Shown here: in pieces, positions 24,038 to 32,205 of the stretch
How the letters are laid out: each line of letters opens with the position of its first letter
Numbering within the stretch: the stretch's first letter is position 1
Assembly: GCA_022578965.1 (NCBI GenBank)
Contig: MU400529.1
Location: 124,001 to 188,000, forward strand
Direction: 5' to 3'
Length of the DNA stretch: 64,000 bases
DNA from: Xylaria sp. FL1777
Lineage: Eukaryota > Ascomycota > Sordariomycetes > Xylariales > Xylariaceae
Made by a program: the position numbers and the translations under genes
Notes under the pieces: generated by a model
Databases searched by the model: none
Seen by the model: the letters and a program-made list of their open reading frames with translations, nothing else
What the model was told of the DNA's origin: nothing

Positions 24038-25389
24038 ATGCCCGTACGTATGACTAGACATTTCTTTGGCTGATTTCTGTGGTGAGCAACCTCATTCTAA
24101 CCCGGCTACGCCCTCAGATCGGCGACCTCCTCGCAGAGATATCTGGCGGGCAGCCGTCATCCGCCCCGTCTCCCAAATCGGCTGGGTCATCGGGCATCAA
24201 GCGAAAGGCTGAAGATGGCTCGAACGGTGCAACATCCACCAAACTGACCAAGGCAAGACAGCCTGATGGATCTTACTCAACTAGTAAGGTGACCCGTGAT
24301 GCGGAAGGCCGGGTTGTAGAGCGGTCGTACTCAGTATCGCGACCAGTGAAAGCTGCTGGCTCTGGCCACGCCGCCTTAACAAATTCGTCCACTCTTCCTC
24401 ACCGCACCAGTTCGCCTTCGACAAACGGACGCCACGACCCGCCCGCCCCTACCAGCCAGCGCATGGCCTCCGTATCGAACGGCAAGTTGCCCGCTACGTC
24501 CTCCAGTACTGCGCAGCCGAAGCGGTTTTCGGAGGTAGCTAGCCGTCCAAAGCTGAATCAACCTGCGTCGACTACTACGAAAATGATTCCACCCAAGCGT
24601 TCTCCAACTACTCCGACTCCATCGGACCCATCGCGAGCACCTAAAAAGGGCTCATTCAAAGAGATAATGGCACGTGGGGCAAAGGCTCAAGAGGTCATGG
24701 GGAAAGTTGGTATGATTCAACACAAATCTACCGATAAAGCTACGAGTAAGAAAGAACGAGACACTGCCAAGCCAGAGCAAAAACCCGGTGTAGGCTCAGG
24801 TGCTAAGGGAAAGATAAATACGCCTTATGCCGGAACTGGCCGGCCTTCTGGGGGCCGTGACAACGGACCTGTAGGGCCATCAGCACGTACTGTGCCAAGA
24901 AATGGCCCTACGAAGGACACTAAGACAGGTAACAAGCTGAAACCGGGCTCCGCGGCAAATGATGCTGCCGAGAAGAAGGTTAAGAAGTCCGCAACCGCAA
25001 CAACTGGTTATGCAGGAACTGCACGACCACGTCCGGGAACCGCGGCCAATAAGGGCCCATCTTCTAGAGGGGACCAGCGTCCCAGACATGGTGGACTTCT
25101 CGAGCCTCCACGAATGAGTCGCCGTAATAGATATGAGGAGGAGTATGACGAGGACTTAGACGACTTCATCGATTATGATGATGAAGAAGAACAAGACATG
25201 GGTCCTCGATATGACTATGACTCCGAAGGGTCAAGTGATATGGAGGCCGGAATGTCGGATATCGATACAGAAGAGAGGAGAGCTGAGTTGTACGCACGCG
25301 AGGAAGATAAACGTGAACAGGCCTTAGAAGAGAAATTGAAAAAAGAGAAAGAGGAGCGGAAACGACGATGGGCACAAGGAGGACGATAA
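24038..25389 (+). CDS. SPT2: SPT2-domain chromatin protein (histone chaperone)
   Basis: Two exons: 24038-24043 (only Met-Pro) and 24118-25389. The intron 24044-24117 (GTACGT...CCTCAG) keeps phase and gives 425 residues beginning MP-IGDLLAEISGG. Most of the protein is basic and disordered (Ser/Pro/Lys/Thr/Gly), with two YAGT(G/A)RP repeats (near 255 and 315) and KKGSFKEIMARGAKAQE. The C-terminus carries the SPT2 signature: an acidic DDFIDYDDEEEQ segment followed by YDYDSEGSSDMEAGMSDID and a basic coiled coil EEKLKKEKEERKRRW. Spt2 binds H3-H4 and DNA and recycles histones behind RNA polymerase II. The very short first exon is inferred from phase and is the least certain part. Confidence 0.88.
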
Positions 25390-27328: not shown

Positions 27329-28106
27329 ATGGATCACGGGTTCATTCATAAACAGACTGGAATTACGAAGAAGCGCCGTCGGCCCTCTGACTATAACCAA
27401 GAGCCATGCGTGGAAATACCAAAAAACCACCAATTCAACATACGCAAGCCATCTCAAGAGGAAGATGAGCTCGAGAAGCGCAAGCGGGAATCCGAAGTCC
27501 GCGTCACCGCCGAATTCCTCGAGAAGTTCATCAAAGAGAACCATGCCGGCCGAGTGCCTCCGGACCCAAGCATCCTACCCGCCGAGTTTCTCTGCATCCA
27601 CTGTAACAAGATCGTCAAGCAAGAGGAGAACCAGCATCCCTGGGCCTGCTAGAGTACGTATTCTCTCTTCCCCACAGGGCTGGAGAACAGAAGTCCCTTT
27701 AACTCCACCATCAAACAAAGCACACGTCAACTAACTAGACATTGAAACCCCGTTTATAGAGCACGAGGGAGTCCTCCGGAATCCAGGCAAGATGATAATG
27801 CGCGCGCCGCGCTTCAGCGCCGGGGAATACGAGATAGTAGACAACGACGACGGCGACGGCGACGGCTCCGCCGGCGTCTTGAAGTGGAGCTGTTGCGACC
27901 GCGAGGAAGACGAGGCGCCGCGACAGGACTGGTACAACGTCCGGTTCAGCAGAGGCGACCCGAAGCTGAGGGAGGGCGTCCGCGAGCCCCCGAAGCCGGA
28001 CTGCGCGCCGACGTTCCACGAGCCCTAGAAGGGCGCCGCGGGATGGCTCGGCTGGTACACGTACGAGGACGGCAAGGTGTCCAAGTGCAGCTGGAGAGTG
28101 GACTGA
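27329..28106 (+). CDS. Cysteine-rich (CHORD-like) protein with two in-frame UAG codons
   Basis: Exons 27329-27653 and 27760-28106 (intron GTACGT, branch AACTAAC, acceptor TTATAG) join in phase to 224 codons ending in TGA. The only interruptions are TAG at codon 108 (27650-27652) and codon 198 (28026-28028). Residues 1-60 are polar and basic; then C89-x2-C92, C107-x2-H110-x-G112, K150-W-S-C153-C154 and later cysteines suggest a zinc-binding fold. The C-x2-H-x-G plus KWSCC pattern resembles CHORD modules. The first UAG lies between two presumed zinc ligands (C107-stop-K-H110). Both stops read UAG-AAG. Without recoding the product is 107 residues. Either the stops are edited or read through, or this is a young pseudogene. 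The exact family is not recognised. Confidence 0.65.
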
Positions 28107-29003
28107 GTAGTTATGCGGATTCTCCTGTGTGTCGGGCATATAATCCTTTGTGAGCTGGATCTTTCATCGAAACTGGCTTGGCATTTTGTGCAATGGGAGG
28201 ACGAGAGGGAGGGAGGGAGCATGGTCTTGATATATTGAGTCCCTTTGGTCAACGAGTTATAGTCATGTTTCAGGCCTCTTTCGAAATCTCTCGGAAATGC
28301 TGTCTCAACTAGTTTAGAGGATATTTCTAATGTCGTCCGGCACCAAATCTTGTTTAAATACTACAGAGTTCATTCACCACACAAACGCACCCATAGACTC
28401 ATTCTACTCAGAAGATGCTTATGCAGCTAGTAAAGTGGTCACTAGGTCCGTGTATAGTGCTGATAAGATGCTTTCTGTTCTAAGAAAACAACAGTGGTTG
28501 TGAGTGACGGCCCAACAACTGAATTTAGTTGAATTATCTCTATTTTAATGCGCAAGTTGTTCTGTTATTATCGAACTAGTATGTGATGGCTTCTTCGAAA
28601 CTTTAAGTAAGACACATACGGTTTAAACAAATAGCAAGGTGAACAAGGGCAGAGAGAGATGACATGTTTACTAGGCGTAGAAAATCTAGTAGGCAATGCT
28701 GAGTAACATCTTAGGGGAGTACGATACCAAGCATAAATCTATGTACATATAAATGATAGCATTTGACCAAAGCTAACTAAAGCTAAAAATTCATTATATG
28801 GTCATATCACAGATATGGGATTTGGTAAAACTTTTTACCCCTAACTCCACCACAGCCTAGTCCTTAAGAAATGATGAAAGGCCGGCAGAAAGCAATGTGC
28901 CTTTGAGCCAACATGAGTATCTAGTCAGAAAGCCGATCCGCTAGATGGAGAAAATGCTTGTGTAGTAATGGTATAAGCTCGGCAATCAGCGAATCCAAAT
29001 GTC
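28107..29003. other. Intergenic, convergent 3' flanks
   Basis: A+T-rich spacer between the UAG-containing gene and the PARP gene. No coding frame, repeat or RNA gene is recognised. Confidence 0.5.
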
Positions 29004-31632
29004 CTACATTCTAACTCGCAAGAGATATCGAAGTCGTACTTGGGAGATATCGTAACAAATATACTCATTATAATAGAGAGATGCGTGGGGGATGTTGGTT
29101 GGACCTGGACTAACAGTTGTATCGGGCACTACAATGCATGACGTTAGTATAAATACTCTTAAGGGTGGCCATTACGTGGCAGTAACCGGGGAAAAGAGAT
29201 TGTATTTGTGCTTTCCGATCCAGCGACAAGAGAACTAGGATGTAGGCAAAATTCTGATACTTAAACGGGTAGGAGGCGGCAATCTACTCACTTTTGACAC
29301 CCTTCAGAGATGGATGTACACATTCTGCGTCCTTCCATTTGCTAGGTCCAGTGTTGCCTTGACCCCATGTCGACAACATTCCATTAGACTTCGCGGTCTG
29401 GCCAGCGCTAGACGAGGCGCTTGTCAAAGTTTGTAAGGGATCACCTAGCTCGGCCTCACATAGAAGCAAAAGCGCGTGGCCGTTGGATATATGTGGACAG
29501 CAGTAGTTGGCAGACTATTTGCTCTGTTAGTTGGAATACCCGTTTCAACAATTTGATTCTCTTACTTTCGATGACATATCTGCCAAGTATATTCCCTTCC
29601 CGAACATATAGCCCGAGACTGGAGCTTCCGGAGGCGCGATCCGAAGCCCTTGACTCAAGATTCCGCCGAAGTTGGTGCATCGCTAGAGTGATTTCAGATG
29701 TTAGAAAGTACCATTTATTATGGCGAAGAATTGATCCATTTCTAGGGTTCGGGTAGATGCCAAAGTGAAATATTTTTCATATGGGGAAAAGACTTAGAAA
29801 TACGTACTGAGCCGTGCCATAGGAGACGTCGATCGCGAGGGGTCTTGTGAGATGCCTCAAATCGGTCGAACTCGCCGTCTCTCTCGATCCGAAAGATTTG
29901 TTGTATTTGGTAATTGGCATTGTGAGTCGCTCCTCGCGTGTCCATCAAGTAGCTTTTCAGCTGAAGAAACTCTTCGCTAGTGTTATTTAACGGTGTCACT
30001 GGCTCAGATGTTAATAGAAAGGAACCCAGGATTTCAGTTGCTTCGGTATTTAAGGTCATGGAAAGAATGAACTAAACTTACTCTCATTCAGGCCGAGCCC
30101 TCGGAACTGACGATCAAGTTCGTTGATCTCTTCTGTTCTGCCAGCCTTCATCAATAGTGCTGCATCCTTCATGTCTCCCAAGCTCTCCAGGAGCTCAATT
30201 TCTTTCTTGAGCATTGTCTTGGTCTGAATAACTGGCGGTCGGTTACGACCGAAGGAATGTGGGATAATAGTGAAGAAAAGGTTCGAAAGCTGTTCGGCTG
30301 CTTGGGGGAAGCTAGTTCCATACTGGGAAGAGGCGAGAGATGGGTCTTCTAACAGCGCCGATAGATCTTTCAACGCCTGAAACCCGCGAGAGATCATTGC
30401 TTTGCTAAGTTTGCCAAGGGGCAGCTTAGCCGAATCATAGTTCAAATCCGTCATCGCATTCGTAAAGTACTCCTGGTTGAAGATAAGCTGCATCAGCGAC
30501 TGGACAGGCTTCGGCAAGTTTGATTCTGGTTCGTCCTCTTCCTTGATTTCCGGCTTGACTGCATTCACACTTTCTTCATCTTCCGAGTCGGGCTCGTAAC
30601 ACTTTTCAATGAAAGCGTACTTGCCAGGCCTTGGTTGATCGCCTCGATTTGCCCACGACAAACCTGACTTGGATTTAAATTTGTCGTTGAATTGTTTTAG
30701 GGCGTCCTCTAAGGAGCCGGACCCGAGTATTTTGGACTGGCCATATTCGCCCACACGACCCCATCGCGTCCACGTTTTGTACTTGCCATTAACAGAACGT
30801 AATATCTAATAACTGTTTTAGCACGATATAGAGAGTGAAGAGATTGGAGAAGAGAGTGTGGTATGGTTGCCATAGCAATATAATTTAGGCTGTAGGGGTT
30901 TGGTTACGTGAACAGGATGAGGTAAGTATATAGGAGACGACTATGTGAACTTACTTGAACGCGATAAAACTTATTGTTGTTGTTACTCGCGCTTGTTTGA
31001 TTCAGCGACGCATCAAAAATGATGCCGTCGTCATCAATATAGACTTCATAGTGGACTAGTTCACGCTCAGCGCCCTCGTCGACGGGGATTTTGACGTCGA
31101 AGGACTTGGCAATTTGACCATCGGCGATCTTAGGCTCTCGCTCCTTGGGTTCGTCGTTGCCGGCCTTGCCTTTCTTCTTAGGCTGTGGTGGTGAATCGTC
31201 ATCGTCATCTTTCTGGGGTGTCTGGGAGGCGGCGAGTCGTTTACGAGCGGTTCTCAACTGGGTGGAACCAAGAGAATCGTTAGCCTGGGGTTGGGGTTGA
31301 GAGGTGAGACCATATGCATCCTCTTTTACGCGTGTATTCTTGGCAAGACACTCTTCGAGCCACTCGAAGGTGACAATGGGAATGCCATTTGCTTGAGCAG
31401 ACTGGACCTTTACTGACGCCCTCTGGTAGTCTGCCTCGGTAGTGACCAGATGGGTGGTGGAAACCGAAACAGATTTGGCTAGGGCACCACCCAATGGCGC
31501 GATGAAATCTTGCGCGATGGAAGCTTGGGTGCGATTGGGGATAGAGCCGCTGATAGCTATGCTGAACCCGGTGAGTGGAGGAGTGAATGGAGGGGTGATA
31601 GGAGTCGCAGCCGTTTTCTTTCTCGGAGGCAT
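29004..31632 (-). CDS. Poly(ADP-ribose) polymerase (BRCT-WGR-PARP)
   Basis: Six exons (30955-31632, 30082-30805, 29808-29998, 29566-29682, 29292-29514, 29004-29128) join in phase to 685 residues. The start at 31632 (MPPRKK) is preferred over an upstream in-frame ATG. Residues about 18-110 form a BRCT domain (GFSIAISG...FEWLEECL). A WGR domain follows ([11 protein letters not shown] at 239-249), then a helical regulatory domain from about 323 ([11 protein letters not shown]). The catalytic domain has H529 (LLWHGS), Y563 (GKGIYLAD) and E666 (YNEYICYD), so the H-Y-E triad of active poly-ADP-ribosylating enzymes is complete. It matches the single fungal PARP (PrpA of Aspergillus, NPO of Neurospora), which acts in DNA damage response and ageing. 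It lacks the zinc fingers of animal PARP1, as fungal forms do. Confidence 0.93.
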
Positions 31633-32205
31633 GGCTGATTGTGTGAGGCTGTAGAATAGAAGGTCGATAAGTGAAGTTAGATGAGATGTTGGTGTAAGTG
31701 TATGGATGATATGATGATATGATGATAGAGGCGCAGAATTGTGAGGCCTCGTTTGGCTTGGGAGTGGTGAGAGAGGAGCGAGATGAGATGGTGCAATTTG
31801 CAATTTTAGATTTCGCTGGAATGGATTGAATTAAATATCTTGAGTTGTTGCACGAGGGCGTCGTTGCTTCTTAGGCAACCATGGCAAACCATACCTACCC
31901 TCTTGGACTCTCAGACACCCAAATCTCCTGCTGGTGAGAAGGCACAGACAGGTACACGCTCAGGTACCGGCACAGGCACAACGGGTCCCATCCCAAACGC
32001 GAAAGCACGTGCCATGCAAAGTATCACTACTGAGAATTAGCCTCTGGCAGGTACATCCATACATTTAACCTACAATTCGGTTTTGTGCACCAACGAAGTG
32101 ACTGCGGCTGAAAACAGTGGGTATCTAGGCTAAGTTAGGTAAGTATCTCAACAGCTCAATTGGTCCATCTCCACCCCAGGCTGTCTCTGCCTCTCGAGTT
32201 ATCCA
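31633..32205. other. Intergenic, PARP promoter and retroelement flank
   Basis: Normal base composition right up to the LTR. It contains GGTACACGCTCAGGTACCGG near 31950. Short open frames are taken as chance. Confidence 0.5.
32201..32205. repeat. Target site duplication, left (ATCCA)
   Basis: ATCCA immediately precedes the 5' LTR and is repeated directly after the 3' LTR at 37806-37810. A 5-bp duplication fits LTR-retrotransposon integration. Confidence 0.75.

What the first reader, a model, noticed from the sequence alone, without database searches (positions are those of the whole stretch)
27329..28106. Gene with two in-frame UAG codons, both in UAGAA hairpin loops: candidate A-to-I stop recoding
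Seen: two exons splice in phase to 223 sense-frame codons, broken only by TAG at codons 108 and 198. No frameshift and no TAA or TGA occurs until the final TGA. Both stops have the same context, UAG followed by AAG. In the spliced RNA both UAGs lie in a five-base loop UAGAA: closed by UGC/GCA (with CCCU/AGGG outside) at the first, and by GCCC/GGGC at the second. The first loop exists only after splicing, because the intron begins one base after the UAG; near the second, a CGAGCC/GGCUCG pairing could compete. Known: Sordariomycetes carry out A-to-I mRNA editing in sexual tissue, with U favoured at -1 and loop adenosines preferred, turning UAG to UGG (Trp) in some stop-containing genes. Inferred: both codons become Trp-Lys (C-W-K-H-E-G and E-P-W-K-G).
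Basis: partly seen in the sequence, partly recalled or inferred. Interest (0 to 1): 0.92.

Follow-up and report, generated by a model that had tools for sequence, protein, structure and literature searches.

The report
Fungal gene with two editable stops
A fungal gene is cut twice by the same stop signal in settings that fungi are known to rewrite in their RNA, so it is probably read in full only when that rewriting happens, a known kind of gene rather than a new system.

Summary
Exons 27329-27653 and 27760-28106 splice in phase to 223 codons interrupted only by TAG at codons 108 and 198. At +-30 nt both UAG adenosines fold into hairpin loops; 110 of 373 background UAGs do. Site 2 is robust (14 of 14 flank sizes), site 1 is not (8 of 14, but always unpaired). 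Coding signal continues past both stops. No intron with a full consensus donor would remove either TAG. The same genome carries a PUK1-like kinase whose TAGTAG aligns with the WW of NDR/Cbk1 kinases; in Fusarium graminearum perithecia that pair is edited to UGGUGG (PMC4817773). Best reading: a new candidate for premature-stop correction, UAG to UIG read as Trp, probably by Tad2-Tad3-Ame1-type editing in sexual tissue. RNA, orthologues and Trp conservation could not be tested; a recent pseudogene remains possible. Products would be 107, 197 or 223 residues. New member of a known kind; moderate interest.

The parts
27329..27653 (+). Exon 1: codons 1-108 and the first base of codon 109; holds C89-x2-C92 and C107
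   Evidence: codon-usage LLR of codons 1-107 is 0.224 in frame
27650..27652 (+). TAG codon 108, candidate edited A at 27651
   Evidence: hairpin loop in 8 of 14 fold lengths of the spliced RNA, unpaired in 14 of 14
27654..27759 (+). Intron, 106 nt, GTACGT...CTAAC (27731)...ATAG
27760..28106 (+). Exon 2: rest of codon 109 to the TGA (codon 224); GC 0.663
   Evidence: coding signal
28022..28034 (+). Hairpin GCCCU/AGGGC with triloop AGA, the candidate edited A being its first base
28026..28028 (+). TAG codon 198, candidate edited A at 28027
   Evidence: A unpaired p=0.97
28029..28103 (+). 25-codon C-terminal tail after the second TAG
   Evidence: GC3 23/25 against 26/50 at positions 1+2, p=6e-4; codon-usage LLR 0.036, inconclusive
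24061..25386 (+). Upstream neighbour: SPT2 chromatin protein
   Evidence: PF08243 E=7.9e-11
30059..31830 (-). Downstream neighbour: poly(ADP-ribose) polymerase type (BRCT, WGR, PARP_reg) in two open stretches

Best explanation
A single-copy fungal protein-coding gene that depends on A-to-I premature-stop correction. Unedited mRNA gives a 107-residue product that ends inside a Cys/His-rich stretch (C89, C92, C107 | H110). When the editing deaminase is active, most likely Tad2-Tad3 with Ame1 in fruiting bodies, A27651 and A28027 become inosine, both UAGs read as Trp, and the 223-residue protein is made; editing of the first site alone gives 197 residues. Shown: the frame, the two UAGs, predicted loops, coding signal past both stops, no full-consensus splice bypass, and a PUK1-like gene with TAGTAG in the same genome. 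Inferred: that editing happens, its tissue, the enzyme and the Trp residues. The protein's function is not known; a metal-binding role is a guess from the Cys/His spacing.
For: Frame intact but for two TAGs. Codons 109-197 score 0.179 against a median of 0.173 for real coding segments and 0.133 for the 99th percentile of off-frame segments (the real segments are those the model was trained on). Tail third-position GC 23/25. Both A's in hairpin loops at +-30 nt, background 110/373; published share for edited sites 62.4% (PMC4817773). Context U at -1, G at +1, A at +3 fits the published preference. In exon 2 before the second TAG no GT scores 2 of 3 on GTRNGT; in exon 1 from 27450 on only GTGCCT at 27554 does. 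PUK1-like kinase with TAGTAG at the WW of kinase subdomain IX. Only the gene itself matched in the genome, at E<=0.001 for the whole protein and E<=10 for residues 85-223.
Against: No RNA or protein data and no orthologue could be examined. Loop and TAG-only statistics are modest (0.087 at +-30 and weaker at shorter flanks; 0.25-0.30), and -1 U and +1 G come with any UAG. The weaker published enrichments, U at -2 and G at +2, are not met: both sites have C at -2 and A at +2. Site 1 leaves the hairpin in 6 of 14 fold lengths. The PUK1-like TAGs, the control, are themselves in hairpin loops in only 5 of 6 and 3 of 6 flank sizes, so the fold predicts poorly. Codon usage of the 25-codon tail is inconclusive. 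Exon 2's dinucleotide indices lie in the RIP-like direction (TpA/ApT 1.14, second index 0.77; thresholds recalled), though over 347 GC-rich bases, with exon 1 opposite and the whole window at 0.95 and 1.11. Four other families with members edited in F. graminearum showed no stop in an uninterrupted exon of the matched domain.
Confidence: 0.73

Rival explanations
1. A recent pseudogene: two nonsense mutations (such as TGG or CAG to TAG) in a gene no longer needed, too young to have gathered frameshifts or other stops.
For: No transcript or orthologue evidence; two nonsense hits both being TAG has 0.25-0.30 probability; exon 2 dinucleotide indices lie in the RIP-like direction; site 1's hairpin is not robust.
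Against: No frameshift, TAA or TGA in 223 codons; both TAGs in hairpin loops at +-30 (0.087 by chance); coding signal continues downstream; single copy, so not an obvious RIP target; the genome keeps a kinase of the edited type.
Confidence: 0.19
2. The stops are recoded outside sexual tissue by an OLD-type (OTT_1508-like) deaminase, as in the OLD-ZAO antiviral pairs, rather than by Tad2-Tad3-Ame1.
For: OLD enzymes share the hairpin-loop and -1 U preference (PMC12754623); three OTT_1508 deaminase matches exist here.
Against: All three lie on contigs C89 and C70, none on C24; a six-frame motif scan of about 4 kb on either side of each found one C2H2-like match, in a stop-rich frame (introns could hide others); the target has no Pfam C2H2 finger.
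Confidence: 0.04
3. The 107-residue product, or a protein ending at codon 198, is the real product and the rest is untranslated or made by plain readthrough.
For: By length alone a 25-codon open tail is not rare (0.43 in shuffles).
Against: Third-position GC runs to the TGA and GC drops after it; TAG108 cuts a Cys/His cluster; UAG-AAG is not a readthrough context known to me (recalled).
Confidence: 0.04

Closest known systems
PUK1 of Fusarium graminearum and NCU03242 (stk-21) of Neurospora crassa (PMC4817773: passages and section 12 seen)
   Same: In-frame UAG corrected to Trp by sexual-stage A-to-I editing; two sites in one gene in F. graminearum; hairpin-loop and -1 U preference
   Different: PUK1 sites are tandem and in a kinase domain; here they are 90 codons apart in a protein of unknown family, and editing is not shown
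Other F. graminearum premature-stop-correction genes such as AMD1, RID, AMA1, BUD14 (PMC11156358 parts 1-2 of 3 read; PMC5496914 passages)
   Same: UAG to UGG needed for full length; a majority of the 69 PUK1-like genes have no known domain; in BUD14 the site also lies in an alternatively spliced intron
   Different: AMD1 has one UAG site as described; whether any gene has two separated sites was not stated in what I read
CHE1 of Fusarium and zao-1/2 of N. crassa (PMC11169179 outline and sections 6-7; PMC12754623 passages and section 2)
   Same: Premature UAG, in a predicted hairpin loop in CHE1, corrected by editing; zinc-finger product
   Different: CHE1 has three C2H2 fingers; zao genes sit beside OLD deaminases; the target has neither

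Membership tests
Fungal premature-stop-correction (PSC) genes | In-frame UAG inside an otherwise intact coding frame | tested here: met
   codons 108 and 198, no other stop before the TGA
Fungal premature-stop-correction (PSC) genes | Coding signal continues beyond the UAG | tested here: met
   codon usage of the last 25 codons alone is inconclusive
Fungal premature-stop-correction (PSC) genes | UAG is exonic, not removed by an intron | tested here: met
   no full GTRNGT donor upstream of either TAG (exon 1 checked from 27450). Five in-phase introns from the partial donor at 27554 would skip the first TAG; for the second, in-phase candidates score 0-1 of 3 and hold no CTRAY
Fungal premature-stop-correction (PSC) genes | Edited A in a hairpin loop with U at -1 | tested here: inconclusive
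   Site 2 met in 14 of 14 fold lengths; site 1 in 8 of 14. -1 U is given by the codon itself
Fungal premature-stop-correction (PSC) genes | Species carries out this editing | tested here: inconclusive
   Indirect: TAGTAG kept in a PUK1-like kinase; DUF726 (the AME1 family as I recall it) present; no RNA
Fungal premature-stop-correction (PSC) genes | A-to-G in sexual-stage cDNA | not testable with these tools
   No transcriptome held
Fungal premature-stop-correction (PSC) genes | Trp or UAG conserved in orthologues | not testable with these tools
   Protein database off; no relative in viral or prokaryote contigs
OLD-ZAO pair | Gene lies beside an OTT_1508 deaminase | tested here: not met
   matches on C89 and C70 only; target on C24
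OLD-ZAO pair | C2H2 zinc fingers | tested here: not met
   only DUF6980 at E=0.028, under its cut-off
DUF6980 (PF22400) | Score over the curated cut-off | tested here: not met
   15 bits against 27; the genome search gave no match, but nothing rang in its controls either

The most novel reading that the evidence does not exclude
A two-gate, splicing-dependent recoding gene: the first UAG can be edited only after the adjacent intron is removed, because its A is freed from pairing only across the exon junction, and a second separated UAG must also be edited, so full-length protein appears only from spliced, doubly edited mRNA and scales with the product of two editing levels.
Probability: 0.28. 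Interest if true: 0.6.

Novelty: new member of a known kind. Interest (0 to 1): 0.45.

Why it matters
If edited, the gene adds a non-kinase example with two separated stop sites, would be missed or split by ordinary annotation, and offers a natural test of whether fungal mRNA editing acts after splicing. The TAGTAG kinase in the same genome gives an internal positive control for the same RNA sample.

Tried and rejected
Protein-database search for orthologues: not answered twice, so Trp conservation is untested. Relatives in IMG/VR and GTDB contigs: none. PDB: none for the target at E<=1. Species naming by a 5.8S pattern: no exact match. A codon-usage scan for other interrupted genes in the held DNA gave 63 stops (27 TAG, 21 TGA, 15 TAA) dominated by noise and was not used. 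Four other families with members edited in F. graminearum (DNA methylase for RID, SPO22, DCP1, RhoGAP) showed no stop in an uninterrupted exon of the matched domain, by eye for the one RhoGAP match with stops; edited sites may lie outside those domains. Which of the four DUF726 genes is Ame1 could not be settled by counting residues. The kinase search scored 123 of 243 first-look candidates and gave 137 matches, 36 with stops; I looked at all 36. By eye, all but the C133 pair read as intron sequence or the edge of a match.

Structure prediction was not run: the Cys/His stretch spans the splice junction and there is no alignment to support a model.

Full report
What is there. The window lies in a 58.7-Mb assembly of 588 contigs. 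Exon 1 (27329-27653) and exon 2 (27760-28106) join in phase into 223 codons and a TGA, broken by TAG at codons 108 and 198 and by no other stop. The intron has GTACGT, a CTAAC branch site and an ATAG acceptor. Searches of the genome found only the gene itself, at E<=0.001 with the whole protein and E<=10 with residues 85-223. It lies between an SPT2 gene and a PARP-type gene.

Is the frame coding beyond the stops? A codon-usage model from 25 long ORFs (13,579 codons) of this genome puts codons 109-197 at 0.179; the median of real coding segments of 89 codons is 0.173 (the same ORFs that trained the model) and the 99th percentile of the better wrong forward frame is 0.133. The last 25 codons are inconclusive on codon usage (0.036), but their third-position GC is 23 of 25 against 26 of 50 at positions one and two (Fisher p=6e-4), and GC falls from 0.65 to 0.47 in the 75 nt after the TGA (p=0.03). 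The coding region therefore probably runs to 28106. Openness alone says little: shuffled tails stay open 43% of the time and shuffled segments 27762-28025 stay open 13%.

RNA context. At +-30 nt both A's are in hairpin loops; 110 of 373 UAGs in long ORFs are, but at +-20 and +-15 the background is 46% and 56%. Over 14 flank sizes from 15 to 150 nt, site 2 is a stem with triloop AGA in 14; site 1 is a hairpin loop in 8 and another loop in 6, never paired; in the unspliced RNA site 1's A is paired in 13 of 14. In a fold of the spliced gene with some flank both A's are unpaired (0.98, 0.97), site 1 in a six-base hairpin loop. The context (U at -1, G at +1, A at +3) fits the main published preference; the weaker enrichments U at -2 and G at +2 are not met. 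The two TAGs of the PUK1-like control are in hairpin loops in 5 of 6 and 3 of 6 flank sizes, so such folds are a loose guide.

Could splicing remove the stops? In exon 1 from 27450 on, one GT scores two of three on GTRNGT (GTGCCT, 27554); it has five in-phase acceptors within the range tried, and using it would delete C89, C92 and C107. In exon 2 before the second TAG no GT scores two, and no in-phase candidate there contains CTRAY.

Does this organism edit? A kinase search scored 123 of 243 candidates and gave 137 matches, 36 of them with stops. I looked at all 36. By eye the stops sit in introns or at match edges, except one pair: locus L038 (C133) reads ...GDYDARCD**SLGVILYECLYG..., genomic TAGTAG. 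Aligned with STK38 (NDR-type) and CBK1 chains of the PDB, the two stops fall on the WW of DWWSLG. In F. graminearum PUK1 the tandem UAGUAG in kinase subdomain IX is edited to UGGUGG in perithecia, and N. crassa has UAGUGG at the same place (PMC4817773, passages). Some Sordariomycetes have G's there in the genome, so keeping TAGTAG suggests that the present species still edits, unless this kinase is itself dead. The name PUK1-like rests on this position and the kinase type; I had no PUK1 sequence to compare.

Other controls gave nothing: the DNA methylase, SPO22, DCP1 and RhoGAP families show no stop in an uninterrupted exon of the matched domain. Four DUF726 matches exist; that AME1 is of this family is recalled. 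The passages I saw of PMC11087585 name a duplication of Ame1 orthologues in the ancestor of Sordariomycetes and Leotiomycetes. Three OTT_1508 deaminase matches exist, none on the target's contig, and a motif scan around them found no convincing C2H2 gene, so the OLD-ZAO arrangement does not apply.

Verdict. The main rival is a recent pseudogene (0.19). The decisive data, RNA and orthologues, were out of reach. In kind it is known: PUK1 and another 70 genes of F. graminearum need this correction. What may be new is two separated stops, the first freed from pairing only across the splice junction. I saw no such gene in the parts I read of the eight papers opened (PMC11156358, PMC11169179, PMC5496914, PMC4817773, PMC5381528, PMC12754623, PMC7306014, PMC11087585; searches); supplementary gene lists could not be read.

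Noticed in passing
L038 (G000:C133:80100-81400, minus strand): PUK1-like NDR-type kinase with genomic TAGTAG at the WW of DWWSLG; a positive control for editing in this species.
   Followed up: yes
L003-L006: Four DUF726 matches in one genome; stops in two of them lie in apparent introns.
   Followed up: partly
L083-L085 (C89, C70, C70): Three OTT_1508-like deaminase matches (OLD type) without a convincing C2H2 neighbour within about 4 kb.
   Followed up: partly
27735-28163 (-) and 27746-28153 (+): GC-rich exon 2 also leaves open frames of 142 and 135 codons in wrong frames, so openness alone is weak evidence.
   Followed up: yes
L031, intron of a kinase gene: A TAGTAG also occurs inside an apparent intron, so tandem TAG must be checked against splicing.
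   Followed up: yes
whole assembly: No exact match to a 28-base 5.8S rRNA stretch (recalled sequence); the rDNA may be missing from the assembly.
   Followed up: no
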